Origin: Paraburkholderia edwinii
Lineage (GTDB): Bacteria > Pseudomonadota > Gammaproteobacteria > Burkholderiales > Burkholderiaceae
Assembly (NCBI RefSeq): GCF_019428685.1
Contig: NZ_CP080096.1
Coordinates: forward strand, 1,240,001 to 1,304,000
Reading direction: 5' to 3'
DNA length: 64,000 nt
The notes beneath the pieces were generated by a model that ran no database searches, was not told the origin of the DNA, and saw nothing but the letters and a program-made list of their open reading frames with translations. Both the position numbers and the translations under genes were made by a program. Shown here one piece after another: positions 23,616 through 40,900 of this stretch. The stretch's first letter is position 1. Each line of letters starts with the position of its first letter.

Positions 23616-24215
23616 ATGATTCCCTTATCTAGCCTTTACGCCTGCCTGTTTGCAGTATTCCTCGTTCTTGTGATGCCAGGCCCGACTAACACGCTACTCG
23701 CGGCGGCGGGCCTCGAACATGGCTTTCGCCGTGCGGTCCGGCTGACCGTCGCCGAATGTTGTGGATATCTGATCGCGATCTCATTCTGGGGCATGTTTCT
23801 GCTCGAACTCGCACGTGCAGTGTCCTGGCTGCCATGGGCAGTGCGTCTTGTGAGCGCGTTTTACATTGCCTGGCTTGCGATTCGCATGTGGGGCGCCACG
23901 CTCGATCTCGCGGGCGGGCAGCGCCGAACCGTCAACATGCGAACGCTTTTTGTCGCTACGTTGCTCAATCCCAAAGCGATCCTGTTTGGTGGAACGATTT
24001 TTCCTGCTGCTGCGTTTGCCAGTTTGACGGGCTACCTCGAAGTGATGGGGGCCTTCGTTGGCTTGCTGTTTCCGATTGGCTCGCTATGGGTAGCAGTGGG
24101 CGCGCAATTGGGGAAGGGACGGCTTGCATGGCTTAAGCCGGCGTACGTGTTGCGCGGAGCGGCGATTGTGCTGGGGGCGTTTTCGGTGACGGTGGCGTGG
24201 TCGGCAGTGCACTAA
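23616..24215 (+). CDS. LysE/RhtB family amino acid exporter
   Basis: 199 aa with six helices. VLVMPGPTNTLLAAAGLEHGFRRA is the family signature. The protein exports an amino acid or related metabolite across the inner membrane. The start at 23616 is 119 bases after the SDR stop and there is no sign of co-transcription. The nearest regulator on the same side is distant, so control is unknown. Confidence 0.87.
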   Translation: MIPLSSLYACLFAVFLVLVMPGPTNTLLAAAGLEHGFRRAVRLTVAECCGYLIAISFWGMFLLELARAVSWLPWAVRLVSAFYIAWLAIRMWGATLDLAGGQRRTVNMRTLFVATLLNPKAILFGGTIFPAAAFASLTGYLEVMGAFVGLLFPIGSLWVAVGAQLGKGRLAWLKPAYVLRGAAIVLGAFSVTVAWSAVH

Positions 24216-24402
24216 GAAACAATTCAAACAGAACTCGGCATGTCCAATTTTTTGCTCAGCCGTGCAGCGTATTTCCTGATGAAGAAGAAAGAGGCGACGC
24301 AATAGGTCGAGCTGATTTTTCAGCCCGGCCTATCGACAGCCGTGTAGCGCCGGATCACGCCGGCCCCGGTTGAACCGTTACGGTAAGGGTCACGTATTCA
24401 AC

Positions 24403-25533
24403 TCAATGCGCCCCGATCTCCGAATCCTTGCAATCAGCCGCCGCATTCACCGGATCGCACCGCGCCACCGACTCGCCAGGTAACGCAACCTTAAACCCCG
24501 TCGACGCAGGCTCCGCAGCCGGATAGTCCGTGCTGATAATCTGCGCGCCGCTATCAAGAGCTTCATCCCGCCGCGTCGTATCGTTGCGCATCGCTTCAAT
24601 CGTGCCGTCGTCGGTTCTGGTTCGGATCAGATAGCCGTCGCGCACGAGTTGCTGGATTTGCGCGACGTCAGGCGTATTAACCTCGATAAACGCGCCGTCT
24701 GCCGCCCCCGGCGTCGAATTCGTAAACAGCACGCGTCCCTCAAGCGACGGATGACCGTCGCGATAAATCGCGGCCAGCTTCGGCGGATCAAGCAGGAACA
24801 CAACCTTACCGCGCGCCTTTTCAAGCGTCGGCCAGCCGTTGTGCGTCACCGCATCGTTAAGCGTGGCATGCGTGCCGCGAACATCATCGGGCATGACGAT
24901 TTGCGAACGCTTGAATACCGACAGAATCGCATGGTCGAGCGCATCGAAGGTCGCGCGATCGAATGGCTCCGGCGACACGGTAGGCAGCGGCCATTTTTTG
25001 GTTAGCGGCTTTTGCTTGGGCTCGATCAGAATAAACAGCGGTACATGCCCCGGGTTCGCAGCAGACCATGCGCGAATCTCCCGCAAACAGGCGCTAAACG
25101 GCTGGCACGTGCTGCGATAGTCGACATCCTGGATATGCATCACCTTGAAGCCGGGCTTTCGCATCAAATGCTGCGGATCGAACGGCGGATCGGCCGGTAG
25201 TCCGGCAGCCTTCACCATTCTCGGGCCGGCAGGGTTGGCATATAGGCCGCCGTTCTGATCGCTGAAAACGTCGAGTTCGAGTTGTCTGACGCCGCCCGTC
25301 AGCTGCGTGGTCAGCGAAGGGTGCTTGTATCCGAGCTTCTTCAGGTCATCGGGATGATGCATTTCCCAAATCTTCGTGTCGCTTGGTGCGATGCCGACGT
25401 GGTAACTGTTGTGCGTGCCGATCACCTGAATCTGGTTCATGCGCACGGCGTTGTCGCCGGTTTGCGCGAGACAGAGCATCGGCGCGAGCGCGAACGCGCC
25501 GGGCATCAGGCATTTGAAAAAAAGCGATTTCAT
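24403..25533 (-). CDS. Secreted Ca2+-dependent phosphatidylinositol-specific phospholipase C-like protein
   Basis: 376 aa. The signal peptide ends at CLA before QTGDN. The catalytic TIM-barrel motif VIGTHNSYH (His41) begins the barrel. GVRQLELDVFSDQNGG supplies the acidic residues, and FKVMHIQDVDYRSTC the second histidine. FILIEPKQKP and FLLDPPK follow. The whole resembles the PLC1-like group of Ca2+-dependent PI-PLCs, which cleave inositol phospholipids or their glycosyl derivatives. It is the last gene of a leftward unit with a GH92 mannosidase and a TonB system. Bacterial PI is scarce, so a host or fungal lipid target is plausible. Confidence 0.82.
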   Translation of the reverse strand: MKSLFFKCLMPGAFALAPMLCLAQTGDNAVRMNQIQVIGTHNSYHVGIAPSDTKIWEMHHPDDLKKLGYKHPSLTTQLTGGVRQLELDVFSDQNGGLYANPAGPRMVKAAGLPADPPFDPQHLMRKPGFKVMHIQDVDYRSTCQPFSACLREIRAWSAANPGHVPLFILIEPKQKPLTKKWPLPTVSPEPFDRATFDALDHAILSVFKRSQIVMPDDVRGTHATLNDAVTHNGWPTLEKARGKVVFLLDPPKLAAIYRDGHPSLEGRVLFTNSTPGAADGAFIEVNTPDVAQIQQLVRDGYLIRTRTDDGTIEAMRNDTTRRDEALDSGAQIISTDYPAAEPASTGFKVALPGESVARCDPVNAAADCKDSEIGAH

Positions 25534-25566
25534 CGAAGCTTCCTGTGGTTGAGCGATTACCGCTCA

Positions 25567-25614
25567 GTGATCGAGTGAGTGATCGAGCGAGTGATCGAGC
25601 GAGTGCTCGAGTTA
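25567..25614. repeat. Four tandem copies of a 12-bp unit
   Basis: GTGATCGAGTGA, GTGATCGAGCGA twice and GTGCTCGAGTTA stand head to tail between the GH92 stop and the phospholipase start. The unit is nearly free of mismatches in the inner copies. Such a short intercistronic array may vary in copy number between strains and alter spacing or mRNA structure. Confidence 0.75.
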
Positions 25615-25619
25615 GCGCT

Positions 25620-28001
25620 TTAGCGCGCGGCGGATGAAGTCGAGCTCGCGCTTGTACCCTGTGTCGCCGCAGCCGCACAAAGCGGCGACTGTGGATCGGA
25701 CATCGACGGCGGCGGCACACGCGTGCCCCAGTCCGTCGGTACCGGTCCCATCGTCAATTCCAGCGTCCCGCCGTCGGCGATCTGCGCATGGCGGAACCAC
25801 GCGTTATCGAGCGGCTTGCCATTGAGCGTCGCCGACTGCACATAGCGGTTCAAACGCTCGCGATCGAAATTTTTTGTGACGATCCGGAACACCTTGCCCG
25901 ACGGCATGTCGATTTCCGCTTCGGGAAAACTCGGCGTGCCGATCAGATAGACATCCTGACCCGCATTCGGATAAAACCCGAGCATCTGGAACACGAGCCA
26001 CGATGACATCGCGCCGGAGTCGTCGTTGCCCGGCAATCCGGCGCGCGAAGCGCTGAACTGTTTTTCGAGCTGATCGACGATGCGATCGACGGACTTGTCG
26101 GGTCGGCCGGCCCATAAATAAAGCATCGGCAGCAAAAAGCCGGGCTCATTCGACATGTCGAAATGCTTGCGGTTGAAAAGCGTATCGAGACGATGAACAA
26201 AAGCCTCCTTGCCACCCGATATCCGTATCAAGCCGCGCACGTCTTGCGGCGCGTACAGCGAGTACGTCCAGATATCGCCTTCATATTCGAAGTTGGGCCA
26301 GGTGCCGCGTATCGTCAGATCGGGCGGCGCCCAGCTGCCGTCCGGATTACGCGGGCGTATGAAGCCGGTCACGCCGCCGGTCGAAAGGCTCGTGTCCCAC
26401 AGGTTGGCCCAGTTGCCCGCGCGTGCCGCATAGCGCCTCGCCGCCGCGGTGTCGCCGAGTCCGCACGCGAGTTCGGCGATCGCGAAATCGTCATAGGCGT
26501 ACTCGACTGTGCGCGATCCCGACCGTTCGTCGGCGTCGGTCACATAGCCTTTGCTGTTGTAATCGATGAGGCCGCCACGGCCTTCCATGCGCGCGTCGGC
26601 GGGCGGCACTTCGGCGTCCTTTTTCATGGCCGCGAATGCGGCGCGGTAATCGATACCCGTCATGCCCTTCACGTATGCGTCGGCCACCACCACGTCCGCG
26701 TTGCTGCCGCCCTGCGTGCGACCGCTCGTATTGCCGCTGCGCGCGTCGGGCATATAGCCTTCATGCCGGTAAATGTCGATCAGCGAGCGGATCGCGTCAC
26801 GCTGACGATCGGGCGCGATCAGCGTGAGCAGCGGCCCCTGCGAGCGGAACGTGTCCCAGATCGCGTAGTAGTCGTCGTAGTACGGTTCTTTCGACTTCCA
26901 CAGCGGATTCTCGCCGGTACGATCCGACGGCAGCAGTAACGCGTGATAAAGGGCGGTGTAGAACTGGCGGCGCTGCGAAACGGTGGCGCCGTCAATGCGA
27001 ATCGGCGATAACGCCTTGTCCCATGTAGCGGTTGCGGCGTCGCGCACGGTGTCGAACTGCCATCCCGGCGCTTCAGCGGTTACGTTGCGGCGTGCCTGCT
27101 CTTCGCTGACAAATGAAATGCCCACCTTGAGCTGGATCACTTGTCCCGCGCCGGTGGTGTAGTCAAGCGACGCGCCGAGCTGCGAGTCGCCTTCAATCGA
27201 TGCGTGCCTCGCTGAAGTGATCGATGCGCCGGACCATGTGTGCGCATCTTTGGCAGGTGTGTCAGAGACGAGGTAGAAGTACACGCGGTATTCGCCGCCT
27301 TCGTTCCATCCACCCCGATAGCGGCCCACACCCGCCACTTCGTGGTCGGACAGCACATCGACCTTGCCGCCGACGAACTGCTGCGATTCGGCGCCGTTGC
27401 CGTGATCGAGCAGATGAGCGACGTCGACGGTGATATGCGCGTCGTCGCTTTGCGGGAATGTGTAGCGATGCAAGCCGACACGGCGTGTCGCGGTCAACTC
27501 GGCAAGCGTGTCGTAGCGCGTCAGCCGCACACGGTAGTAGCCGGCACTTGCCTCTTCATCGGCCCGCGCGGACTTGATGTCGCCGGGATTCAATGGCCCG
27601 GTCACGGGCGCGACGAGTATATTGCCGTACTTGCCGGAGCCGCCGCTCAGATGCAGATGGCTGAAGCCTTTCACGAGGCCGCTGCTTGCATAGCCGCCGC
27701 TAGCGGGTTCGCCGTCGAAATTTTCGACGTCGGGGCCGAGCCTGACCATGCCGAAAGGCAAGGTTGCGCCGAGAAAGACCTTACCGCCGGTATCGACGCC
27801 AAGGTAGGGATAGACCGCGCTGGCGGGTCCCGACGTTGCCGTTTCGTGCGACGTGGTTGGAACGCCGTAGGCGTCGCCGGTCGCGGTCTGCGCGAGCGTC
27901 GCCGCGCTTACGCTGCCTGAATACGCAAAATACAGCGCCGCCGCCGCGAGGCAAGCCTTCGCCCGAACGCATCTGAGTGACGCTAAAAGTGAGCAGTTCA
28001 T
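25620..28001 (-). CDS. GH92 family alpha-mannosidase
   Basis: 793 aa from the ATG at 28001, with an export signal (LAAAALYFAYSGSVSA). The N-terminal beta-sandwich (VDTGGKVFLGATLPFGMVRLG) leads to an (alpha/alpha)6 barrel with YYAIWDTFRSQGPLL, GRTQGGSNADVVVADAYVKG and the catalytic loop LPGNDDSGAMSSW, where the two Asp act with a Ca2+ ion in the family. GH92 enzymes remove alpha-linked mannose from N-glycans, yeast mannan and phosphoinositol mannosides. It follows a TonB-dependent receptor by 15 bases and precedes the phospholipase, so it is probably periplasmic or surface-exposed processing. Confidence 0.9.
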   Translation of the reverse strand: MNCSLLASLRCVRAKACLAAAALYFAYSGSVSAATLAQTATGDAYGVPTTSHETATSGPASAVYPYLGVDTGGKVFLGATLPFGMVRLGPDVENFDGEPASGGYASSGLVKGFSHLHLSGGSGKYGNILVAPVTGPLNPGDIKSARADEEASAGYYRVRLTRYDTLAELTATRRVGLHRYTFPQSDDAHITVDVAHLLDHGNGAESQQFVGGKVDVLSDHEVAGVGRYRGGWNEGGEYRVYFYLVSDTPAKDAHTWSGASITSARHASIEGDSQLGASLDYTTGAGQVIQLKVGISFVSEEQARRNVTAEAPGWQFDTVRDAATATWDKALSPIRIDGATVSQRRQFYTALYHALLLPSDRTGENPLWKSKEPYYDDYYAIWDTFRSQGPLLTLIAPDRQRDAIRSLIDIYRHEGYMPDARSGNTSGRTQGGSNADVVVADAYVKGMTGIDYRAAFAAMKKDAEVPPADARMEGRGGLIDYNSKGYVTDADERSGSRTVEYAYDDFAIAELACGLGDTAAARRYAARAGNWANLWDTSLSTGGVTGFIRPRNPDGSWAPPDLTIRGTWPNFEYEGDIWTYSLYAPQDVRGLIRISGGKEAFVHRLDTLFNRKHFDMSNEPGFLLPMLYLWAGRPDKSVDRIVDQLEKQFSASRAGLPGNDDSGAMSSWLVFQMLGFYPNAGQDVYLIGTPSFPEAEIDMPSGKVFRIVTKNFDRERLNRYVQSATLNGKPLDNAWFRHAQIADGGTLELTMGPVPTDWGTRVPPPSMSDPQSPLCAAAATQGTSASSTSSAAR

Positions 28002-28016
28002 ATCAAAGCGACCCAA

Positions 28017-30272
28017 TCAGAAATACACCGTTGCCTGCAGCGTGAAGTTGCGCCGCGGCAGGAAATAGAAGGTCGGATCGACCGCCGCGCCATTGCCTTC
28101 GGTCGCGGTGCGCCGATTGAACAGGTTATCGACGAGCAATTGCAGCTTCAGCCGCTTCTGATACCGGAAGCCGAGCACCAGATCCGAGTAGTAGTACGCG
28201 GGAAGATTCACGTTCGGGTTCTTCGGGTCTTCGCCGGAACCCGTGAAGCGCGTGCCGACGTACTTGGTCAGAAACGAACCGAAGAACGGCCCGCGGTCGT
28301 AAAGCACGCCGAACAATGCGGTCGAGCTAGGCGCATTGGCGATCGTCAGACCCGTCGTCTTCGACTTCGCGCTGTTCAAACTGCCGTTGACCGTTACCGC
28401 GAAACCGTGGCCGATCTGATACGTGGCCTCGGCCTCCAGACCCTTGTAGATCACGCCGCCCTGGTTGAAGAACACCGGCTGGTTCGTCACGCCGTCGACG
28501 GTTTCGAGCCGGCTGTTGATCTCATTGGCGAAGTCGATGTAGTAGCCGTCGAAGTCCGCTGCCAGCCGGTCGCTCTTGTAGACCACACCAGCCTGGTAGT
28601 TCAGCGTTTTTTGCGGATCGAGCGGCGCCTGTTGCGGCGCGAGGCTTTGCAACACGCTAACGGGCGGCGCCTGAAAACCCATCGCCCACGATGCGTACAC
28701 CGACACCGGCGGTGCGATGCGATAGTTCGCGGTCACCGAGCCGAGGTCTGCGCTATACGATGCGCTGTTATTCAAGGCGATAAAGTTTTGCAGGCCATCG
28801 AAGCTGCGATTGAAATTGATGTGCTTGTAGCCCGGCGTGATGGTGAGCCCGGGCAGCGGCTTCCACTCGAATTCGAGGAAGGTCTGCGCGGTGTTGGTCA
28901 CTGCGAGGTTGTTGTTGACGAGCGAGCCCTTGCCCGGGTTCGTCAGAAATTGCACCGGTGTGTTGGTTCTCAGGTCGACGTCCTGCTCGAACTGGTTGAT
29001 CCGCGCGTGTTCGAGCCATGTGCCCGCGCGAATCGTCGTCGAGAGCCAGCCGCGGCCGACGTCGCCTTCGATCTTGAAGATATCGCCCCAAGAACGGTAC
29101 TGGCTCAACGATTGCGTGCCGGGCACGCCGCTCGCGAGATTCACCGAATTGGGCGTGCGCAGCGTCGGGTCCAGACCGCCGAGGCCTTCGTCGGACAGCG
29201 CGTACGTGTACACCTTGTTGTCGATCCGCACGACGCCGAGGTCGCTTTGCACGCCGATATATTCAAAATCAGCGCGGCGGTGATCGGTGTTGTAGCCCGC
29301 GAACGCCTGCGAGTTCGGATCGGCATTCAGGTTACCGAAGTCTTTGCTGAAGCGGTTCGCCGTTTCGGTCGTGATCTGCGAAAACGTGTTCCAGATCACG
29401 TCGCTGACGCTCGAGAAGAGCGTCACCACCGTGTTGTCGCCGATCGGCTGTTCGACCTTGAACGACCAGTTATTACGGCGGAAATTCGCGTTTTCGATCA
29501 GGCCGTTGGTGCGCGTATGGTCGAAGTTGAGCTGCGCGGTCGTGCCGCCTGTCTGCGAAATCACGCCGGTGTCGAGCACGCCGCCTTCCTCCCACGACGC
29601 GCCGGTGCCGATTGCGCTAAAGAGCCGGCCGCCAGGTGTCTGCGAAGGCGTTTCCGAAAACAGCGAGATGGTGCCGCCGAAGGTCGCGTTGCCCACCGTG
29701 CTTGCCGTGCCCGGCCCGCGATCGATCACGACATGATCGAGCACGGCGGCCGGAAAGAACGACACCGTCGCGTGCCCGAACGCGCTCGGGTCACCGAATG
29801 GAATGCCATCCCACGTCACGTTGTACTGGCCGTCCTGGAAGCCGCGGATCGTGCCGCTCTTGCTCGAATAGCCGGCACCGTTCGGCGTGGCATTGACGAC
29901 CGAAGGCGCATATTGCGCGATCGCCAGATAGTCGGAGTTCGGTTGCGCGATGTTCCGGATCAGATTCTTGTTTAGCACCGTTTGCGGCTGAATTTCGGTC
30001 AGCGATGCCTGCGTCGGCGCGATCAAGGGAGCGGTGTTTGCATGCGCGTTGGGCGCATTCGGGTCGTTGCTCTGCGTATCAGCTGCGCCGGTGGCGCCGA
30101 CCGTCCCGAGATCGAGGGGTTGGCCCGAGGATTGTCCCGCGGTTTGAGCGGGGGGCTGACCGGCGGGTTGACCCGGCGAGTTTGCAGGAACAGTCGACGA
30201 CGAAGCGGGTTTGTCCTGCGCATTCGCGTTGAGCGCGAATGCCATGAGCGCGAGCGAGGCTGTGAGGCGCAT
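28017..30272 (-). CDS. TonB-dependent outer membrane receptor
   Basis: 751 aa. A signal peptide (LALMAFALNANA) is followed by an odd Gln/Pro/Ala-rich segment to about residue 55. The TonB-box-like LDLGTVGATG follows, then the plug (TIRGFQDGQYNVTWDGIPFGDP) and a 22-strand barrel ending in the terminal Phe (LQATVYF). It takes up a large or scarce ligand across the outer membrane. Its neighbours TonB, ExbB and ExbD on one side and GH92 and PI-PLC on the other suggest glycan rather than siderophore uptake. FecA-like iron transport is the alternative. Confidence 0.9.
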   Translation of the reverse strand: MRLTASLALMAFALNANAQDKPASSSTVPANSPGQPAGQPPAQTAGQSSGQPLDLGTVGATGAADTQSNDPNAPNAHANTAPLIAPTQASLTEIQPQTVLNKNLIRNIAQPNSDYLAIAQYAPSVVNATPNGAGYSSKSGTIRGFQDGQYNVTWDGIPFGDPSAFGHATVSFFPAAVLDHVVIDRGPGTASTVGNATFGGTISLFSETPSQTPGGRLFSAIGTGASWEEGGVLDTGVISQTGGTTAQLNFDHTRTNGLIENANFRRNNWSFKVEQPIGDNTVVTLFSSVSDVIWNTFSQITTETANRFSKDFGNLNADPNSQAFAGYNTDHRRADFEYIGVQSDLGVVRIDNKVYTYALSDEGLGGLDPTLRTPNSVNLASGVPGTQSLSQYRSWGDIFKIEGDVGRGWLSTTIRAGTWLEHARINQFEQDVDLRTNTPVQFLTNPGKGSLVNNNLAVTNTAQTFLEFEWKPLPGLTITPGYKHINFNRSFDGLQNFIALNNSASYSADLGSVTANYRIAPPVSVYASWAMGFQAPPVSVLQSLAPQQAPLDPQKTLNYQAGVVYKSDRLAADFDGYYIDFANEINSRLETVDGVTNQPVFFNQGGVIYKGLEAEATYQIGHGFAVTVNGSLNSAKSKTTGLTIANAPSSTALFGVLYDRGPFFGSFLTKYVGTRFTGSGEDPKNPNVNLPAYYYSDLVLGFRYQKRLKLQLLVDNLFNRRTATEGNGAAVDPTFYFLPRRNFTLQATVYF

Positions 30273-30367
30273 GACGACTCCTTGCCGGACGGCAATAGGG
30301 AAGTGGGTGCCGCTGTGACGCGGCGATAGGAACTGGCGTGAACCGCCGGGCGACTTGCGTCGTGCGG

Positions 30368-31132
30368 TCAGGAAGACGGTGCGAAGGTCACGACAATCTC
30401 GAGGTTCAGCAGATGACCCTTGAGTTCGGGCGGAGGGTCCGGAAACGCGGCGCTATTGAGTGCCGTCAATGCGGCGTCGTCGAGCATGCGCTGCCCGGAC
30501 GATTGCACGACATGCGGGTTCGAAATCGTGCCGTCCTGATACGCGAAACCGAGCCGGACATGCCCGGTAAGCCGCATGATTCGCGCGGCATTCGGATAGC
30601 GGACGGCGGCCTGCACGGCATCGCGCAAGCGTGCCTGGAACAGTGCGGATGGTTTGGCATCCGAATGGCTTGCCTGCGCTTGAGGCTGCGGTTGAGGCTG
30701 TTGCGGCGACGCATCGACGGGAGGCGCGGGCGTTTCCGGTGCCTGGTCATGCGCCTGCTCGGGCTGCGCTGGGGTATCAGCAGGCGCGGGCGCCTTCGGC
30801 AACTCCGGCTTTGGCGCAATGGGATTCGCGTTCCGCTTAGGCGCCACGGGTTGCTTCACCGCGCGCGGCGGCGGCTTCACCGGCACCGGCGGCGTGGGCG
30901 GCGCTGTCTTCGCGGCAGCCGGCGGCGGCGCGGGAGGCGTTGGCGCGGGTGCCGCTGGCGCCAGCATGACCTTGATCGGCTCGGGCGGCTTCGCTTTTGG
31001 CCTGATCTCCTCGCGCTTGAAGAGCCCAGTGAGCGCTGCGAGAATCAGCGCCTCAATGACGAGCGAAACGACGAAAGCTTCGCCGAGTACCGTGCGAGCT
31101 CTCGCCGGCTCCGGCTGTTGCAACGTGCTCAT
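30368..31132 (-). CDS. tonB: TonB energy transducer
   Basis: 254 aa. One N-terminal helix (VVSLVIEALILAALTGLF) anchors it in the inner membrane. A Pro/Ala/Lys-rich spacer (about residues 45-165) crosses the periplasm. The C-terminal TonB domain carries YPNAARIMRLTGHVRLGFAY and DDAALTALNSAAFPDPP. It works with ExbB and ExbD upstream in the same unit and energises the receptor encoded next. It is a dedicated copy, so this receptor need not share the housekeeping TonB. Confidence 0.9.
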   Translation of the reverse strand: MSTLQQPEPARARTVLGEAFVVSLVIEALILAALTGLFKREEIRPKAKPPEPIKVMLAPAAPAPTPPAPPPAAAKTAPPTPPVPVKPPPRAVKQPVAPKRNANPIAPKPELPKAPAPADTPAQPEQAHDQAPETPAPPVDASPQQPQPQPQAQASHSDAKPSALFQARLRDAVQAAVRYPNAARIMRLTGHVRLGFAYQDGTISNPHVVQSSGQRMLDDAALTALNSAAFPDPPPELKGHLLNLEIVVTFAPSS

Positions 31133-31165
31133 TTCACGATTCCAGTATTGCGGTCGGCCGCATGT

Positions 31166-31558
31166 TTATTGCTGCACTTTGGCGGCCAGAGAAATCTGCG
31201 TGACGCCTGCAGTGCGGCATGCGTCCATGACAGCCATCAGGCTTTGCACCGACGTGCCCTGATCGCTTGCAATCGTCACGGCCGTTTTGGCGGGGTCGTT
31301 GGCGGCGAGTTGATGGGAAAGTTCAGGCAACGCAACCGGCTTGCCGTCGACCAGCACGCTGCCGTTCTTCAGCAGAGCCACGAGCACCTTCGGGTGCGGC
31401 ACTTCCGTGGCGGTCGAGCTATGCGGCAATTGCGAAGCGATGCCGCTGCTCGGAATCATCTTCAGCATTGCGATCACGAAGAAGACGAGCAGGAAGAACA
31501 TGATGTCGATCATCGGCACGATCTCGATGCGTGCCTTGCGTGGCTCGAGGTAGCGCAT
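31166..31558 (-). CDS. exbD: ExbD biopolymer transport protein
   Basis: 130 aa. The single helix IVPMIDIMFFLLVFFVIAML contains the conserved Asp that carries protons. The periplasmic domain has DGKPVALPELSHQL and VTIASDQGTSVQSLMAVMDACR, typical of ExbD/TolR. The ATG at 31558 overlaps the TGA of ExbB (TGATG). With ExbB it forms the proton-driven motor for the adjacent TonB. Confidence 0.9.
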   Translation of the reverse strand: MRYLEPRKARIEIVPMIDIMFFLLVFFVIAMLKMIPSSGIASQLPHSSTATEVPHPKVLVALLKNGSVLVDGKPVALPELSHQLAANDPAKTAVTIASDQGTSVQSLMAVMDACRTAGVTQISLAAKVQQ

Positions 31559-32193
31559 CACGCATGACTCCTTGCGCTCGATCCGTCGAGACGGTTGATC
31601 AGCATCGTCTTTAGCGTTTCCATGTCGTGCACGAGCATGCGAACGCGCGTCTGCAACGCATTGAGGAAGATCAGACCGACAATCGCGACCAGCAGTCCGG
31701 ATGCGGTCGCGACCAGCGCTTCCGCGATACCGCCGGTGATCTGGGTGGGTGCCGTGCCGGGCTGGCCTAACACCTGAAACGAGTTGAACATGCCGATGAT
31801 CGTGCCCAACAGGCCGAGCAGCGGCGCCAGCGTGACAGCGGTGTCGAGCAGCCACAGCGAACGGTCCATTCTTGGAACTTCGAGAAGAATCGCTTCTTCG
31901 AGCCTGTCGCCAAGCCGCACGTGATCGCGCAGATCCGGAAAGTTGAGTGGCACGCGTAGCACGCTCGCAAGCGGCTGGCGCTGCACGCTGCGCAGCAGGT
32001 TACCTAGCTCATTCAGGTCGAGATGATTGAGCGATTCGACTCGCTTGATGACGAGATGACCTTTTTCTCTAAGCCGCGCAAGAAACCACGTGCGTTCGAG
32101 ACTAATTGTGAGGGTCATCAGAAACAATAGCGGCATAACGAACAATATGCCGCCGGAAGACATGGCGATATTAATCAGATTGCTGAAAGACAA
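31558..32193 (-). CDS. exbB: ExbB/TolQ/MotA family proton channel protein
   Basis: 211 aa. The TTG at 32193 is preferred because GGAG lies 7 bases before it and the first helix then begins properly; an ATG at 32163 is the alternative. Helix one is GGILFVMPLLFLMTLTISLE. LLDTAVTLAPLLGLLGTIIGMFNSF and ATASGLLVAIVGLIFLNAL are the other two, with the usual channel-lining residues. It is the first gene of the leftward TonB-receptor-GH92-PLC unit. Confidence 0.87.
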   Translation of the reverse strand: MSFSNLINIAMSSGGILFVMPLLFLMTLTISLERTWFLARLREKGHLVIKRVESLNHLDLNELGNLLRSVQRQPLASVLRVPLNFPDLRDHVRLGDRLEEAILLEVPRMDRSLWLLDTAVTLAPLLGLLGTIIGMFNSFQVLGQPGTAPTQITGGIAEALVATASGLLVAIVGLIFLNALQTRVRMLVHDMETLKTMLINRLDGSSARSHA

Positions 32194-32546
32194 TTGACTG
32201 CTCCGGCTAAAGAAGTAACTTGCAAAAGGCTTGGTGAATCGAAACCCAGATATTGGACATGTGCCGAACAATTCGAGGGAAGTTAGAGGGGGTGTGTTTC
32301 AGGTTTGTGTCGGTGGCCTACCGGCCATTTCGATGTCGCACCATTTTTTTATTTTTTTGAGTCGGATAACTGATTGATTGGAACTTTAAGGGGCGCTTTG
32401 CTTTATTAGCTCATTGCTTTGTGTGCTGGCGTGTTTAGTTCGTGCGCAATCTTATTTTAGTTAATGACTGAATGCGCAGAATGGCAATAGATCGACGCGG
32501 CGCATAAAGGGACTTATGGCCGCAAATCGATCGGAGAAGGAAGCGT
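32194..32546. other. AT-rich intergenic region ahead of ExbB
   Basis: About 350 bases between the MFS stop and the ExbB start. 32330-32480 is clearly AT-richer than its surroundings and includes two T-runs. It must hold the promoter of the whole ExbB-to-PLC unit. I cannot recognise a convincing Fur box or catabolite operator, and no gene is supported here. Confidence 0.4.
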
Positions 32547-34193
32547 TTAGTCGGATTTGCACACTTTGCTTCGTGAGGTTGAACGGACCTTGGCGAGCAT
32601 GTTAGTTGCCACCCTGGTCAGGAATCTATCCTTCCTGGCAACAACCGGATGACGTACACTCGCATTCGCTTCGCGCGCCGAGCGACCGTCAAACGCGACA
32701 ACGCTAAAAAACGTCAAGACCCAGGCACCGGTCATGCCGTACAACATCACGAGACGGAAGCCATGCACGAGCGCCGCATGAACGATCACGCCGTGCGGAT
32801 CGGCGGCCATCAGTTCGACGCTGCTTTGCGAGAGCTCCGCGATCGCGCCGGCAGCAACTTTTTCCGCAAGCAAGCGCAGCGAAGCGACATCGGAAATATC
32901 GGGCAGTGCGCGCGAGAGCGAGGAAAGCACGCCTTCGAGCAAGACAAAACCCATGAGTGCGATATTGATGGCGAGGCTGATCAATCTCGCGCTCATATCG
33001 ATGCCCGAAGCCATACCCGCGCGGTTTGAAGACACGGAGCCCGTAGCGGTATTCGTGACGGGCGTATTGGTCAGGCCGAGCCCGATCCCGCACGCCAGGC
33101 AGCCCGGCAACATCGTGATCCAGCTGGCGTGGTCGGCGCCGGTTCCGAGCCTCATCAGCAGGAAGCCGAGGCCGATGGTGAACATGCCGAGCGGAATGAC
33201 GCGGCGCGCTTCGAACCGGAGCGCGAGACGCTCAGCAAACGGCGGCACCACCAGTGTCGGCAACGTATAGGCAAGTAGCGACAGTCCCGCCTTTACGCTC
33301 GTATAGCCGAGCGCGCCTTGAAAATAGATCGGCAGGTAGATCATGAACGGCCAATAGCTGAAGTTCATGCCCATCGACCCAAACATCGCACCCGAAAACG
33401 GACGAATCCGGAACACCGAAAAATCGAACATCGGCCGAGGGCTGCGCTTCTCGACATAGAGGAATGCCATGAAACTCGTGGCCGTGCCCGCGATGATGCT
33501 CCACGCGACGACGCTGTCGAATCCGAGGGCGGGCCCTTGCGTAATCAGATAAACAAGGCCGAAAGTCGATGCCGATAGCGTGACGACACCGGGCACATCG
33601 AGGTGCTGCGCATGCGGGTCGCACGATTCCTGCACACCGGCGAAGGCGAGACCGAACGCGACGACCGAGACCAGCGTGTGGACGAGAAACACCCACTGCC
33701 AGTTGGCGATCGCGACGATCATGCCGCCGATAATCGGCCCGAAACCCAGCCCGATGCCAAAGATAATTCCCCATGCGCTAAACGCCTTACTGCGTTCGCG
33801 TCCTTCCTGAAACTGATGCGACAGCACAGCGACCTGGCAGATAAGCATCGCGCCGCCGCCCATGCCTTGAAGAAACCGGCTGACGATCAGCACGGGCGCG
33901 TTCCACGCAAGCCCGCAAACCAGCGACGTGACCGCGAACATCACGATGCTGGCCATATAAACGCGTTTGCGCCCGAAACGGTCGGCGAGCGCCCCGGTAG
34001 CCATCAGCACGGTGGTGCACGCGAGCGTGTACGCATTCATGATCCATTGAATTTCCTTGAAGTCGGCATGGAGCACATGCTCGAGCGTGGAGAGTATGGT
34101 CGGCACACTCGATATTTCGAGCCCGAACATCAGCGAAGTCAGGCAAACCGTGGCGAGTGCAACGGCATTTTGAGGATGGCGAAGTAGTGTCAT
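32547..34193 (-). CDS. MFS multidrug efflux transporter, DHA2 type
   Basis: 548 aa from the ATG at 34193. A longer frame to 34256 would pass into the shared promoter. There are 14 helices, with FGLEISSVPTILSTLEHVL in helix 1, GALADRFGRKRVY in the first loop, and SRFLQGMGGGAMLICQ. The C-terminus is Arg/Lys-rich and cytoplasmic. It is divergent from a LysR gene with a perfect inverted repeat between them, so it is probably induced by the drug or metabolite it expels. Confidence 0.87.
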   Translation of the reverse strand: MTLLRHPQNAVALATVCLTSLMFGLEISSVPTILSTLEHVLHADFKEIQWIMNAYTLACTTVLMATGALADRFGRKRVYMASIVMFAVTSLVCGLAWNAPVLIVSRFLQGMGGGAMLICQVAVLSHQFQEGRERSKAFSAWGIIFGIGLGFGPIIGGMIVAIANWQWVFLVHTLVSVVAFGLAFAGVQESCDPHAQHLDVPGVVTLSASTFGLVYLITQGPALGFDSVVAWSIIAGTATSFMAFLYVEKRSPRPMFDFSVFRIRPFSGAMFGSMGMNFSYWPFMIYLPIYFQGALGYTSVKAGLSLLAYTLPTLVVPPFAERLALRFEARRVIPLGMFTIGLGFLLMRLGTGADHASWITMLPGCLACGIGLGLTNTPVTNTATGSVSSNRAGMASGIDMSARLISLAINIALMGFVLLEGVLSSLSRALPDISDVASLRLLAEKVAAGAIAELSQSSVELMAADPHGVIVHAALVHGFRLVMLYGMTGAWVLTFFSVVAFDGRSAREANASVRHPVVARKDRFLTRVATNMLAKVRSTSRSKVCKSD

Positions 34194-35331: not shown

Positions 35332-36243
35332 TCATCCGTGAAGCCATTGGGCAATTGCCGCACCGACAGAAGCGATCGTCGCATTCTGGTGCTTTCCATC
35401 GGACGGATCGCCGGTCAGATAGATCGAGATAAACAGCGGGCGGCTTTCTTCCGACGGCCAGACGACGGCCACGTCGTTTGTGGTTCCGTGTTCGCCTGCG
35501 CCGGTCTTGTCTCCGATTCGCCACTGCTGCGGCAGCCCCGCGCGCAGCCGCGTCCCGCCGGTTTTATTGCCGGCCAGCCAGCCGATCAGGCGGTCTCGCG
35601 ACGCGGGCTGTAGCGGGTCGCCTGTCACTAGTGCGCGCATATTCGACAGCATGGCGGCCGGCGATGTCGTATCGCGCGGATCGCCGGGGCGTGCTTCGTT
35701 AAGCTCAGGTTCGACCCGATCGAGGCGCGTGACGTGATCGCCGAGCAGGCGCGCATAGGCGGTGAGGGCCTCAGGCCCGCCGATGCTTGCCAGCATGAGA
35801 TTGCCGGCGGTGTTGTCGCTAAAGGTGATGGCCGCTTCGCAGATTTCCGCGAGTGTCATGCCTTGCGCACCGGACCTGTTTTGGGTAACCGGAGAATTCA
35901 CCACGACATCGTTCGGCTCGAAACGGATGCGGCGTTCCAGTCGATCGGTGCCGCTATCGACTCGTGAAAGCACCGCAGCGACCGCCAATAGCTTGAACGT
36001 GCTGCACATTGGAAAACGCTCGTGTGACCGGTAACCGGCGCGCTTGCCGGTCTGCGTGTCGATCACTGCAACGCCCAGCCGGCCCCCGCGGTCGGTCTCG
36101 ATGTGACGCAGCGCGACCGATAGTGCATCGGGTGCGTCGTTATCGCTTTGAGCGAACGCCCTCGACATCGGGAAAAGCGTCGGAAATAAACACGCCCCCG
36201 AAACAGCAAGAATTGCTTTTGCAACGCCGCGACGATCAGTCAT
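35332..36243 (-). CDS. Class A beta-lactamase
   Basis: 303 aa. All active-site elements are present: Ser81-x-x-Lys84 in CSTFK, Ser-Asp-Asn at 142-144, Glu178 in EPELN and Lys-Thr-Gly at 246-248. Cys80 precedes the catalytic Ser, as in PenA and CTX-M. No second Cys follows the KTG (GDKTGAGEHGTTND), so the disulphide of KPC/NMC-A carbapenemases is absent. The N-terminus has DRRGVAKAIL then SRAFA, possibly a Tat signal, as reported for Burkholderia PenA. No AmpR-like regulator is adjacent; the nearest LysR gene is of another type and converges. Confidence 0.93.
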   Translation of the reverse strand: MTDRRGVAKAILAVSGACLFPTLFPMSRAFAQSDNDAPDALSVALRHIETDRGGRLGVAVIDTQTGKRAGYRSHERFPMCSTFKLLAVAAVLSRVDSGTDRLERRIRFEPNDVVVNSPVTQNRSGAQGMTLAEICEAAITFSDNTAGNLMLASIGGPEALTAYARLLGDHVTRLDRVEPELNEARPGDPRDTTSPAAMLSNMRALVTGDPLQPASRDRLIGWLAGNKTGGTRLRAGLPQQWRIGDKTGAGEHGTTNDVAVVWPSEESRPLFISIYLTGDPSDGKHQNATIASVGAAIAQWLHG

Positions 36244-36485
36244 TCCATGTTCTCCTTATGTTTTCCTCATGTTCTTCTCAGGCAGGAGCGCTACTGTCGC
36301 TGTGGCTCGCCTGATCGACAAGCGATGAAAAATCGGGAGAGCCGATAGATAAACTTGGGCATCGATGCGCGCTGGGAAAAGTAAGCACTTCGCTCAAGCC
36401 CGGGTTTGGAAAACCCTAAGGCGATTGACTAAAGTTATCTTCATGCCCATTACCTCGCATGACGGCGTGCAAAGCGGAGGAGAGC

Positions 36486-37913
36486 ATGGCCGACCTTCAA
36501 CTCGACGTGAACCCGACCTTGCGCACCGTTGCGGATCTGCCGTGCCCGCGCGGTATGCCGATTCTGGGGAATCTCTTCCAGATGGCGCCGGCAAAATTGC
36601 ATCTGACCTTGGAGCAATGGGCGAAGCAATTCGGTTCGCCATACAGGGTCCAACTCGGCACGATCCCGGTGACGGTATGGACGCAGGCCGATCTGTTCCA
36701 GACCGTCATGCGCGAGCGGCCGCATCTGTATCGCCGGTTTGCGCCCATGGAATCCGTGATGGCCGAACTGGGCGGAAACGGCTTGTTTTCGGCGGAAGGC
36801 GCGGCCTGGGAACCGCAGCGCCGGCTCGTCATGCGAGCGCTTTCCTTTTCGAACATCAAGGGCTTCTTTCCGGCGCTGGAAGCGATTACCGGGCGTTTTC
36901 TCGTTCGACTGCAACAGGCCGAGAAGGAGCAACGAACGCTCGAGATGACGAAGGAACTCAAGCGCTATACGGTCGATGTGACAAGCACGCTCGCCTTCGG
37001 CGAGGACCCGCATACGCTCGAACGGGAACAAGGCATCATCCAGGAACAGCTTGCTCTCGTCACGCCCGCGCTGATGCGGCGCATCACCGCGATTTTTCCT
37101 TACTGGCACTACGTCACGCTTGCCGAGGACCGGCGGCTCGCGCGGGCCATGGTGGAAGTGCACAGTTATATCCGCAAGATGATCGAGCGGGCGCGCGAGC
37201 GCATGCGTGAGGCTCCCGATGCGCCGCCGCGCAACCTGCTTGAAGCCATGCTTGCCGCGCGCAACGAGCCCGATTCGAAAGTGACCGATGAACAGATTTC
37301 GGCGAACGTGCTGACGCTGCTCGTCGCGGGCGAGGACACGACGGCGAATGCGATTGCCTGGGCGCTGATGTACGTTGCCGCGGATACCCGGCTGCAGAAT
37401 CGCCTGTTCGAACAGGCGCGTATGGCGTTCGGCGAATCCGCAATCTGTCCGGACTACGACGCATTGAAGCATCTCGATCTGTGCGAGGCCGTATGCAACG
37501 AGGCGCTGCGCTTGCGGCCCGTTGCCGCGATCCAGACATTCGAGCCGCTGACCGATGTGTATATCGGCGGCGTCGCGATACCGGCGCGAACACGCATGCT
37601 GTTTCTGACGCGTCCGGCCACGCGCGACCCGCTGAACTTCGCGCACCCGGAAACGTTCGATCCCGACCGCTGGAAGCACCCGCGAGATCCATCGGAAGGC
37701 GCGCACGAACTGAAGGCGTACCTGACATTCGGAGCGGGTCCGCGCGTGTGCCCGGGCCGTTATCTCGCAGCGGTCGAGATGAGGCTCGTCATATCGATGC
37801 TGACGCGCCACTTCGAGATCGAACTCGCGATCGACCCCGCGAAGATTGAAGAAGTCTCGGCATTCACGATGGTGCCGAACACCATGCCGGTGCGGCTCAG
37901 GCCACGCGGCTGA
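36486..37913 (+). CDS. Cytochrome P450
   Basis: 475 aa, cytoplasmic, starting at the ATG behind GGAGGAGAGC. The I-helix oxygen-activating motif AGEDTT is at about 281-286, the K-helix ExxR in NEALRLRP, and the haem loop FGAGPRVCPG with Cys422 as ligand. Its look (LPCPRGMPILGNLFQM at the start, FDPDRW) is of the CYP4/CYP102-like class that hydroxylates fatty acids or terpenoids. No redox partner gene lies near. A large cyclase-domain gene follows after 46 bases on the same strand, probably in the same transcript. Confidence 0.92.
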   Translation: MADLQLDVNPTLRTVADLPCPRGMPILGNLFQMAPAKLHLTLEQWAKQFGSPYRVQLGTIPVTVWTQADLFQTVMRERPHLYRRFAPMESVMAELGGNGLFSAEGAAWEPQRRLVMRALSFSNIKGFFPALEAITGRFLVRLQQAEKEQRTLEMTKELKRYTVDVTSTLAFGEDPHTLEREQGIIQEQLALVTPALMRRITAIFPYWHYVTLAEDRRLARAMVEVHSYIRKMIERARERMREAPDAPPRNLLEAMLAARNEPDSKVTDEQISANVLTLLVAGEDTTANAIAWALMYVAADTRLQNRLFEQARMAFGESAICPDYDALKHLDLCEAVCNEALRLRPVAAIQTFEPLTDVYIGGVAIPARTRMLFLTRPATRDPLNFAHPETFDPDRWKHPRDPSEGAHELKAYLTFGAGPRVCPGRYLAAVEMRLVISMLTRHFEIELAIDPAKIEEVSAFTMVPNTMPVRLRPRG

Positions 37914-37959
37914 ATCGCGGCTGAATAACAGTTCGGAGACTTTCCCCGCAGGAGAGAAC

Positions 37960-40900
37960 GTGGACGTCGCCGCCTGGCTGCATAGCCTCGGAATGGAACA
38001 ATATGAGCGGGCGTTTCGCGAGAACGCGATCGACGAGCACGTGCTGCACAGCCTGACGGCCGACGATCTGAAAGAACTCGGTATCGCCTCGATCGGTCAT
38101 CGCCGCAAGCTACTCGATGCGCTGAGCGAATTGCGAACGCGGACGCAGGCATCGCGGCAGGCTACCACCCCGATACGATCCGCGCACGCCACAGCGACCC
38201 TCAGCGACACGAAGGCCGAACGACGGCAGGTCGCCGTGCTGTTTGCCGATCTGTGCGGCTTTACGGAGATGAGCCGCGAAGTCGACGCGGAGGACGTGCT
38301 CGCGATGCTCGATCGATACTTCGAGCAGACGGATCGCATTGTCGAGCAACATGGCGGCCATATCGACAAGCATGTTGGCGATTGCGTGATGGCTGTTTTC
38401 GGGGCGCCGCTTTCGCACGGGAACGATGTCGAACGCGCGTTGCGTGCGGCGCTTGCCATCCGCGACGCGATGCCGCGTTTATCGCGCACGCTGTCGCGTC
38501 CGCTCTCGGTGCATGTCGGTATTGCAGGCGGACAGGTCGTCGCGAGCGGCGCCGGCAGCGACGCGCATCGCGAGTACACCGTGACCGGCGAGACCGTGAA
38601 CCTCGCCTCGCGCCTCACCGACGCGGCCGGGCAAGGCGAGATCCTGATTTCGGAAGCCGTGTGGCGCGCGGTGGCCGATCGCGTCGACTGCGCGGAGCGT
38701 GGCGCGATTGTCGTCAAGGGTTTTGCGCAGGCGCTGCCGGCCTGGTGTCTTGCCGGGTTTCGGCACACTGGCCTGGGGCGGCCGTTTATCGGCCGTCGCG
38801 ATGAACTGCTCCAGTTCAGGGCCGTGCTCGAATCGTGTCGCGAGACCGGGCGCGGGCAGGTTGTGCAGGTGCGCGGCGAAGCCGGCATCGGTAAGACCCG
38901 TATTGTCGAGGAATTCCAGCGTGAGGCGAGCGAGCTGGGCTTCGCTTGCCATGGCGCCGTCGTGCTCGACTTCGGTGCAAGTACGGGACGGAATACGATT
39001 CGGTCGCTTGTGCGAAGTGTCCTTGCGCTCGACGATGCAAGCGATGCCGGCACGAGCGATGCCGCTGAAGATGCCGGCGCGGCCGCAATCGCGCATGCCA
39101 CTGCGCACGGCTTGATCGATGCCGGCGAGGCGCTCTTTCTAAGCGACCTGGCCGGTGTGCCGCAGACGGCCAGCGAACGGGCGGTCTATGAGGCGATGGA
39201 CAATGCAATGCGTGTCTCGGGCCGCGCGAACGTTTTGACGGGGCTCGTGCAACGAGCGAGCCGTATGCAGGCCCTTGTGCTGACCGTCGAGGACATTCAC
39301 TGGTCAGACGGATCGACACTCAGTGACCTTGCCCAAGTCGCCGCGACGGCGGCTCAGTGTCCGGCTGTTCTGCTGTTGACGACACGTGTCCAGGGCGACC
39401 CGCTCGATGAGATATGGCGCGCGGCGGCCGCTGCGCCGTATGCGCGTTTCGATGTCGGTCCGTTGAACGTCGGCGACGCGCGTCTGATGGCCGAATCGTT
39501 TCCTGGTGCGACGGCGGACCTTGCCGAACGCTGCATCGAACGCGCGTCGGGCAACCCGCTTTTCCTCGAACAGTTGCTCAGAAATGCGGAGGAGACGGCA
39601 GGAACGGGCGTGCCCGGATCGGTGCAAAGTCTCGTACAGGCGCGGCTGGACCGGCTCGATCCGGCAGACAAAACGGTGTTGCAGGCGGCCTCGGTACTGG
39701 GGCAGCGTTTTGAAAAAGACGCGGTCGTTCACCTGCTCGATGGCGCCGACGCGAAGTTGGAGAGCCTCGTAGAAAGCCTTTTGCTGCGGCATCAAGGCAG
39801 TGGATTTCTGTTTCACCACGCGCTGATTCGCGATGCGATCTATGACGGACTGCTCAACAGCCGGCGCCGCGAGTTGCATCGCCGCGCGGCACACTGGTAT
39901 AGCGAGCGCGACCTCGTGCTGCGCGCCGAACATCTGGATCGCGCGGCGGACGCCGATGCGGTCCGCGCCTATTGCGACGCGGCACGTTCGCTGGCGGCCG
40001 GATACCGCTATGAATTCGCGCTTCGTCTCGTCGATCGAGGGCTGCAACTCGCGGCGCCCGCCGACGCCGAGCGCGTCGCGCTCGAGTGCCTGCGTGGCAA
40101 CATCCTGTATGACATGGGCGACATGACACAGGCGCTCGGCGCTTTCGAAACGGCGCTCGACTCCGCGACCACGGACACCGAGCGATGCCACGCATGGATC
40201 GGGTGCGCCACGGTGAAGCGCGTGATCGACCATCTCGATAGCGCATGGACCGATCTGGACCATGCGCAGGCCGCAGCCACCGCTGCAGGCCTGCTGCGCG
40301 AAGAGGCCCGCATCCATTTCCTGCGCGGCAATCTGTGTTTCCCGCGCGCCGATAGCGACGGATGCCTGCGCGAACACCAGCGCGCCCTTGCACTCGCGCG
40401 CGAGACGCACGACCACGAACAGGAGGCGGCCGCGCTGGGCGGCGTCGGCGATGCCGAGTACATGCGCGGCCACATGATGAGCGCCTACGATGCTTTCTGC
40501 CGCTGCATCCGGTTGTGTCAGCGGCATGGCTTCGGACGCATCGAGGTCGCCAATCGGCCGATGCGCGCGATCACTGCATGGCTGGTCGGCAAGGTCAGAG
40601 CGGGACTCGACGACGCGCTCGCGAGCGTTGCCGCCGCGGAAAAGGTCGGCCATCGCCGCGCGCTTGCCATCGCGCATCACTCCGCCTACAACTGCCTGCA
40701 CGATCTTGCCGAATGGGATCGCGCTATGGAGCATGTCGGCCCGGCGTTGCAGTGTGCACTCGAGCTTGGAGCAAGGCGCTTCGAAGGCGAAGCGCTGCTG
40801 TTTCGCGCGGAGTTGCACCGCGCGGCGGGGCGCCGCCGCGAGGCGCTCGACGACATTGAAAAAGCGCTGGCGATCAGCCGGGAGACCGGTATGGCTTATC

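What the first reader, a model, noticed from the sequence alone, without database searches (positions are those of the whole stretch)
24403..32193. Complete TonB-GH92-PI-PLC scavenging unit
Seen: six leftward genes with short gaps encode ExbB, ExbD, TonB, a TonB-dependent receptor, a GH92 alpha-mannosidase and a secreted PI-specific phospholipase C. Known: GH92 enzymes trim alpha-mannose and PI-PLCs cut inositol lipids; TonB receptors import large ligands. Inference: the enzymes together would take apart mannosylated inositol lipids (GPI-type anchors, fungal or mycobacterial phosphoinositol mannosides), with their own dedicated energy transducer. I know of no described system with this exact gene set.
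Basis: partly seen in the sequence, partly recalled or inferred. Interest (0 to 1): 0.72.

Follow-up and report, generated by a model that had tools for sequence, protein, structure and literature searches.

The report
Mannosyl-inositol lipid scavenging gene cassette
A soil-type bacterium carries a portable six-gene set, pairing a mannose-trimming enzyme with an inositol-lipid-cutting enzyme and its own powered import gate, that probably lets it feed on the sugar-inositol head groups of membrane lipids of fungi, plants or other microbes.

Summary
In P. humisilvae and P. solisilvae the same 7.8-kb set lies in unrelated flanks. The conserved core is the GH92 plus PI-PLC pair. 19 of the 120 listed closest GH92 homologues are natural GH92-PLC fusions. 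A PLC occurs in 41 of 42 genomes with a GH92 locus of at least 57% identity. Of 144 genus genomes, the same three hold both. The receptor orthologue accompanies the pair in five Azospirillaceae and Rhodanobacteraceae loci; other loci tested have other outer-membrane proteins. ExbB-ExbD-TonB was found only in Paraburkholderia (80 loci). The best functional clue lies outside the window: in Rhodanobacter and Fulvimonas, paralogous GH92, PLC and TonB-receptor genes share one run with myo-inositol catabolic genes (iolC, iolD, iolE, iolG). Which lipid (GPI, fungal MIPC, plant GIPC, mycobacterial PIM) is undecided; no enzyme was assayed. It is a TonB-type utilisation locus, a known kind, with a target that no listed paper described.

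The parts
31558..32193 (-). ExbB-like proton channel, TTG start
   Evidence: PF01618 105 bits; TTG start and preceding GGAG conserved in L032 and L033
31166..31558 (-). ExbD-like protein, start overlaps exbB stop
   Evidence: PF02472 97.2 bits; junction TGATG
30368..31132 (-). TonB-like protein
   Evidence: PF03544 43.6 bits; TIGR01352 40.3 bits over cut-off 27.1
28017..30272 (-). TonB-dependent outer-membrane receptor
   Evidence: PF00593 116.1 and PF07715 35.3 bits; none of the six NCBIfam receptor models listed reaches its cut-off
25620..28001 (-). exported GH92 exo-alpha-mannosidase (open frame starts at 28016, ATG at 28001 more likely; signal peptide judged by eye)
   Evidence: PF07971 510.7, PF17678 195.9 bits; TIGR01180 445.9 over cut-off 249.55; E579 and D666 of the 798-aa frame invariant in 24 of 24 rows
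24403..25533 (-). exported Ca2+-dependent-type PI-PLC (PI-PLC-C1; signal peptide judged by eye)
   Evidence: PF16670 437.2 bits over the whole model; relatives 3h4w and 5fyo in the PDB
32194..32546 (-). leader region upstream of exbB; parts alignable between three Paraburkholderia cassettes; no Fur or Pho box above shuffles
25534..25619 (-). GH92-PLC spacer with imperfect repeats of about CTCGATCACT
   Evidence: sequence

Best explanation
The cassette is a self-powered TonB scavenging locus for mannosylated inositol lipids. An exported GH92 alpha-mannosidase removes terminal alpha-mannose, and an exported Ca2+-dependent-type PI-PLC then splits the inositol phosphate head from the lipid (diacylglycerol or ceramide). 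The TonB-dependent receptor, driven by its own ExbB-ExbD-TonB, brings the water-soluble head group, or a larger piece of it, across the outer membrane. Mannose and inositol (after a phosphatase) enter central metabolism; the genome encodes at least one inositol catabolic step (iolE) elsewhere. Shown: genes, families, conserved catalytic positions, fusions, co-occurrence, the cassette in unrelated flanks, and a paralogous set beside inositol catabolic genes. Inferred: the substrate, the order of action, which side of the outer membrane each enzyme works on, and what the receptor carries. A reason for the order, also inferred: PI-PLCs start with attack by a neighbouring inositol hydroxyl (2-OH in classical enzymes; the Ca2+-dependent type may use another; recalled). 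Mannose on that hydroxyl would block the cut until removed.
For: Families and catalytic positions (residue roles from PMC5930347). 19 of the 120 listed closest GH92 homologues are single chains with GH92 first (from residue 14-42) and PLC second (from residue 758-794), the order of the genes here. PLC in 41 of 42 genomes with a GH92 locus of at least 57% identity against 8 of 22 searched with more distant GH92 loci (23 of the 37 such loci were given, one not held; one of the 8 also holds a close GH92). In 150 genomes of the family of Granulicella mallensis, 10 of 10 with GH92 of at least 57% have a PLC against 12 of 140 without (Fisher 5.5e-10, not corrected for kinship). In the genus the same 3 of 144 genomes hold both. 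PLC within the flanks held for 24 of 44 rows of one GH92 clade and 0 of 37 outside it. In Rhodanobacter sp. OK091 and Fulvimonas sp. R45 one strand holds an ABC transporter, IolC, IolD, IolE and an MMSDH-type dehydrogenase, then GH92, TonB receptor, PI-PLC, sugar kinase, GH92, RpiR regulator and IolG; Iol and MMSDH models over curated cut-offs (overlaps checked). Own genome has iolE over cut-off.
Against: No assay exists. The PLC and GH92s in the inositol runs are paralogues (PLC 284-286 bits, GH92 260-346 bits, against 1128 for the close GH92 in the same Rhodanobacter stretch), so function is carried over by analogy; their receptor was not matched by ours at E 1e-5. 20 of the 44 clade rows have no PLC within the flanks held. 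PF16670 proteins also occur without this GH92 (12 of 140). The 57% line was drawn after seeing the gap in identities, six of the ten genomes in the family draw are also among the 42, and the comparison with distant GH92s is mixed with phylum (14 of those 22 are Bacteroidota or Verrucomicrobiota, 4 with PLC; 8 are Acidobacteriota, 4 with PLC; counted by eye). The short loop near the GH92 +1 site also occurs in sister clades without linked PLC. No phosphatase or inositol gene is in the cassette, and iolE is on the other contig.
Confidence: 0.62

Rival explanations
1. Generalist debris locus: GH92 trims alpha-mannan or N-glycans and the PLC cuts ordinary phosphatidylinositol, each on its own substrate; they travel together because dead fungi and plants supply both.
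For: Characterised GH92 enzymes act mostly on mannan, N-glycans and mannobioses (PMC5930347). One Acidobacteriaceae locus (L045) adds a phosphocholine-PLC-like enzyme (TIGR03396 567.6 bits, just under cut-off 580.25), a GH28 and a second GH92.
Against: 19 of 120 one-chain fusions of exactly these two domains; genomes with the close GH92 nearly all hold a PLC (41 of 42), those picked by more distant GH92s often do not (14 of 22 without, mixed with phylum).
Confidence: 0.23
2. Release of GPI-anchored proteins or damage to a eukaryotic host membrane is the purpose (interaction or virulence factor), with uptake secondary.
For: PI-PLCs can release GPI proteins (general knowledge); a fungal PLC is reported to be involved in degrading plant GIPC during infection (PMC11496612, title and abstract start, passages).
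Against: A TonB receptor and an energiser in the cassette, and the inositol catabolic genes around the paralogous set, point to nutrition.
Confidence: 0.08
3. The receptor is an ordinary iron, haem or B12 receptor with its energiser, and the two enzymes are accidental neighbours.
For: Source names call relatives iron complex receptor or BtuB; TIGR01783 gives 81 bits.
Against: The NCBIfam receptor models listed are far below their cut-offs; no Fur box above shuffles; the receptor orthologue is next to the GH92-PLC pair in 7 named loci from three families besides the window, in 5 of them with a TetR gene beside it.
Confidence: 0.04

Closest known systems
TonB-type carbohydrate utilisation loci (Bacteroides PULs for mannan and N-glycan; Xanthomonas CUT loci, the latter recalled)
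   Same: Outer-membrane TonB receptor next to an exported GH92 alpha-mannosidase in one co-directional cluster; scavenging logic
   Different: Adds a PI-PLC as a regular partner and, in Paraburkholderia, its own ExbB-ExbD-TonB; no SusD-type family among the six genes
GH92 exo-alpha-mannosidases BT3130, BT3965, BT3990
   Same: Family, general acid and base positions; best PDB hit 6f8z = BT3130 (PMC5930347); Ca2+-dependence expected
   Different: About 13-17 residues shorter before the NEP motif than the three solved enzymes aligned across it (6f8z, 7zgm, 6f91); that this is the 580-loop carrying His584-Glu585 in BT3990 is inferred from numbering; sister GH92 clades share the shortness
Ca2+-dependent bacterial PI-PLC (PDB 3h4w, 5fyo)
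   Same: Weak but significant sequence matches to both; PF16670 for ours
   Different: Alignable to those structures only from about residue 137 to 278; gene-linked or fused to GH92
myo-inositol catabolic (iol) operons
   Same: In two Rhodanobacteraceae iol genes share one run with GH92, PI-PLC and a TonB receptor
   Different: The Paraburkholderia cassette itself has no iol gene; iolE is elsewhere in the genome

Membership tests
GH92 | N-terminal and catalytic domains over Pfam and NCBIfam cut-offs | tested here: met
GH92 | general acid and base at BT3130 Glu535 and Asp637 positions | tested here: met
   E579 and D666 by the alignment (chain-to-native offset of 16 inferred, fits both residues); 24 of 24 rows; roles from PMC5930347
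GH92 | Ca2+-dependent exo-alpha-mannosidase activity | not testable with these tools
   needs assay
PI-PLC-C1 (PF16670) | full-length match to the model | tested here: met
   437.2 bits, model 1-329 of 329
PI-PLC-C1 (PF16670) | catalytic histidines and metal ligands of 3h4w and 5fyo present | tested here: inconclusive
   H41 and H133 invariant in 22 of 22 rows, but PDB alignments start near residue 137; residue roles recalled
TonB-dependent receptor | plug and barrel domains | tested here: met
Siderophore, haem or B12 receptor | score over the curated cut-off of such a model | tested here: not met
   best TIGR01783 81.1 against 223.5
TonB-ExbB-ExbD energiser | three genes together, each over the Pfam cut-off | tested here: met
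   one of 8 ExbD-family places in the genome
Bacteroides-type PUL | SusC/SusD pair | tested here: not met
   Pfam hits of the six genes hold no SusD-type family
TonB CUT-type utilisation locus | TonB receptor gene-linked to exported degradative enzymes across lineages | tested here: met
   window plus L032, L033, L038, L039, L041, L059, L061
TonB CUT-type utilisation locus | substrate-induced expression and TonB-dependent uptake | not testable with these tools
   needs bench work

The most novel reading that the evidence does not exclude
This is a dedicated bacterial utilisation system for mannosyl-inositol lipids (fungal MIPC, plant GIPC, GPI cores or phosphatidylinositol mannosides), in which a GH92 branch removes mannose from inositol itself, unmasking the hydroxyl that the partner PI-PLC needs, so that two enzymes, often fused, act as a strictly ordered pair. 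Mannose on inositol O-2 of a mycobacterial glycolipid resisted Jack bean alpha-mannosidase in one study (PMC8294699, passage), so such an activity would be a new tool as well.
Probability: 0.3. Interest if true: 0.75.

Novelty: new variant of a known kind. Interest (0 to 1): 0.6.

Why it matters
Inositol glycolipids are major membrane and anchor lipids of fungi, plants, protists and mycobacteria (general knowledge). How soil bacteria recover their mannose, inositol and phosphate did not turn up in the papers I could search. A portable gene set, a fusion enzyme found repeatedly in public sequence, and an inositol gene run containing the same parts make this directly testable with recombinant proteins. 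If right, it gives new reagents for stripping GPI, MIPC, GIPC or PIM head groups, and it adds inositol lipids to the list of TonB-imported nutrients.

Tried and rejected
AlphaFold model of a GH92-PLC fusion (P0135 with 38 further rows): mean pLDDT 57.4, pTM 0.46, too poor; no fold search was run on it. Short GH92 +1-site loop as a PLC-specific adaptation: rejected, since sister clades without linked PLC share the length (45-46 residues between the acid and NEP in the rows where the pattern matched). Fur or Pho regulation: best matches no better than 300 shuffles in three leaders. Sigma-70 promoter scan of 24150-32700: none found, shuffles mean 1.9; terminator-like sites 11 against 8.8 in shuffles, so nothing to use. 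Conserved TetR regulator: beside the operon in 8 of the 80 loci, the query's own locus included, not in the Paraburkholderia cassettes; the nearest own-genome match is 39% identical and unlinked. Ceramidase PF04734 in the own genome: no hit, but no control rang either, so it says nothing. PLC near the Desertivirga GH92 (L104): suspected from coordinates, dropped because contig lengths differ. Ten paper searches: no listed title or abstract start describes a GH92 plus PI-PLC locus; lists were capped (for example 20 of 1,123) and the library holds only open-licence PMC papers.
Full report
OBSERVATION. The window lies in an 8.30-Mb, two-contig genome (G000:C2:1240001-1304000). Six leftward genes between 24403 and 32193 encode ExbB, ExbD, TonB, a TonB-dependent receptor, a GH92 glycoside hydrolase and a PI-PLC-C1 phospholipase, each over its Pfam cut-off. 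Gaps in gene order are -1, 33, 95, 15 and 86 bases. exbB starts with TTG, conserved with its GGAG in two relatives. The GH92 start is more likely the ATG at 28001, giving an N-terminus that looks like a Sec signal (by eye). PLC and receptor also start with signal-like sequences (by eye). A refinement: the PLC is of the Ca2+-dependent PF16670 type, with PDB relatives 3h4w and 5fyo.

A PORTABLE CASSETTE. blastn of the whole window against the loci of P. humisilvae (L032) and P. solisilvae (L033) finds only the cassette (24403-32214 and 24438-32214), in pieces of 79-85% identity, with no match in the flanks; L032 against L033 likewise matches only there. Among 144 genus genomes, 3 hold the PLC and the same 3 hold the close GH92 at 81-100% identity; by size and coordinates two of these are the two named species, so this is not independent of L032 and L033. 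21 others hold only GH92s whose best match is at most 38% identical (fragments up to 42%). Protein lists put PLC and GH92 of P. jirisanensis, and PLC, GH92 and receptor of P. domus, on contigs of one length each (by eye; their ExbB, ExbD and TonB were not looked at). GC of the cassette (61.6%) equals that of the window, so composition does not mark it as foreign.

THE CORE IS GH92 PLUS PLC. Of the 120 listed closest GH92 homologues, 19 are single chains. In all 19 the GH92 match starts at residue 14-42 and the PLC match at 758-794; in three a further small GH92 match falls inside the PLC part. 80 named genome loci were fetched from 532 candidates. phmmer on their open frames and a quick tree (SH-aLRT only, drawn root) show one group of 44 rows (support 100), from Acidobacteriota and Pseudomonadota plus the window and one unassigned MAG, with a PLC in the flanks of 24 rows, the window included; the 37 rows outside have none. 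Flanks are short on several small contigs, so these are lower bounds. At genome level, 41 of 42 genomes with GH92 loci of at least 57% identity have a PLC at E <= 1e-20. The miss is a MAG (L073) whose GH92 is in pieces, and one hit is partial (G314). Of the 37 more distant loci 23 were given, 22 held, 8 with a PLC, one of these also holding a close GH92; phylum is mixed into this comparison. In a draw of 150 genomes from the family of Granulicella mallensis, all 10 with GH92 of at least 57% identity have a PLC, against 12 of the other 140; six of the ten are among the 42. The 57% line was set after seeing the gap to the next best (52%). Fisher values are; kinship is not corrected for.

RECEPTOR AND ENERGISER VARY. 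The window's receptor orthologue stands beside the pair in L032, L033, L038 (Azospirillum), L039 (Nitrospirillum), L041 (Dyella), L059 and L061 (Luteibacter). Of the four sphingomonad loci, two were tested and hold a different TonB receptor (L064, L068). The one Acidobacteriaceae locus tested (L044) has an OMP_b-brl_4 barrel between PLC and GH92. ExbB-ExbD-TonB, sought by phmmer with the window's own proteins, was seen only in L032, L033 and the window. A TetR gene lies beside the operon in 8 of the 80 loci, from Azospirillaceae, Rhodanobacteraceae and Sphingomonadaceae, the query's locus included.

STRONGEST FUNCTIONAL CLUE. In Rhodanobacter sp. OK091 and Fulvimonas sp. R45 the PLC is a more distant one. 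Reading around it (contig identity and overlaps checked) shows one co-directional run. In order: an ABC transporter of monosaccharide type (all three parts below model cut-offs), IolC-aldolase (1038 bits), IolD (896), IolE (401), IolB (321; scanned in Rhodanobacter only), methylmalonate-semialdehyde dehydrogenase (701), a GH92, a TonB-dependent receptor, the PI-PLC, a PfkB sugar kinase, a second GH92, an RpiR-type regulator and IolG (413). In Rhodanobacter a CehA/McbA metallohydrolase follows the PLC; the Fulvimonas frame tested there matched nothing. The Iol and dehydrogenase models are over their curated cut-offs (Fulvimonas IolC 1038, IolD 908, IolE 403, MMSDH 702, IolG 406). The close-type GH92 lies farther along the same contig, about 3.6 kb (Rhodanobacter) and 14 kb (Fulvimonas) beyond iolG. 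These GH92s and PLCs are paralogues of ours, so this is evidence by analogy, but it ties GH92, PI-PLC and a TonB receptor to inositol as a nutrient. The window's own genome has iolE over cut-off on the other contig. Two Acidobacteriaceae loci carry CehA/McbA hydrolases, two each (L040, L045).

MECHANISM. GH92 enzymes are Ca2+-dependent, inverting exo-alpha-mannosidases; BT3130 Glu535 and Asp637 are acid and base (PMC5930347, parts 1-3 of 6 read). They map to E579 and D666 here, invariant in 24 of 24 aligned relatives. The stretch before the NEP motif is shorter than in the three solved enzymes aligned across it, but sister clades without linked PLC share this. The same paper notes alpha-1,4-mannose in GPI cores. 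In mycobacterial lipoarabinomannan the inositol carries mannose at O-2 and O-6, and Jack bean mannosidase did not remove the O-2 mannose (PMC8294699, passages). Fungal MIPC and plant GIPC are further candidates (PMC12942302 and PMC11496612, passages). I infer that the mannosidase acts first and the PLC second. 12 of 120 listed PLCs carry a lipobox-like start by a loose pattern, the five named Azospirillum and Nitrospirillum ones among them, suggesting membrane anchoring there; ours does not match it.

STANDING. What it works like: a TonB utilisation locus. Is it a member of the Bacteroides PUL class: no SusD-type family among the six genes, so not filed there. Ten paper searches listed no description of this gene pair (calls named under Tried and rejected); the novelty claim is limited to that library.

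Noticed in passing
window 35332-36243 (-): Class A beta-lactamase gene (NF033103 329.5 bits over cut-off 200; nearest named family BOR, below its cut-off), close to the cassette.
   Followed up: no
window 36459-37913 (+) and 37846-41307 (+): A cytochrome P450-like gene overlapping a large protein that looks like a SAM-domain adenylate cyclase with an ATPase region (by eye, no family search).
   Followed up: no
window 25533-25612 (-): Spacer between GH92 and PLC holds imperfect tandem repeats of about CTCGATCACT.
   Followed up: no
L130, L133 (Rhodanobacter sp. OK091) and L131, L134 (Fulvimonas sp. R45): myo-inositol catabolic genes in one run with two GH92s, a TonB receptor and a PI-PLC; a finding in its own right.
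   Followed up: partly
L040:16260-17441: NagX-like (glucosamine N-acetyltransferase, 169 bits, below cut-off 480) gene near PLC and GH92 in Silvibacterium; GPI heads contain glucosamine (recalled).
   Followed up: no
L045:7038-8501: Phosphocholine-specific phospholipase C-like gene next to the PI-PLC and GH92 in Granulicella sp. L60, suggesting a broader lipid-head locus.
   Followed up: no
L060 and L063 (Terriglobus roseus): Two GH92 copies with identical rows in the tree at two places about 460 kb apart in one chromosome.
   Followed up: partly
L038:13494-14933 and L039:13494-14978: Signal-bearing gene after the PLC in both Azospirillaceae loci; the L038 one is a predicted M20 peptidase, the L039 one looks similar by eye only.
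   Followed up: partly
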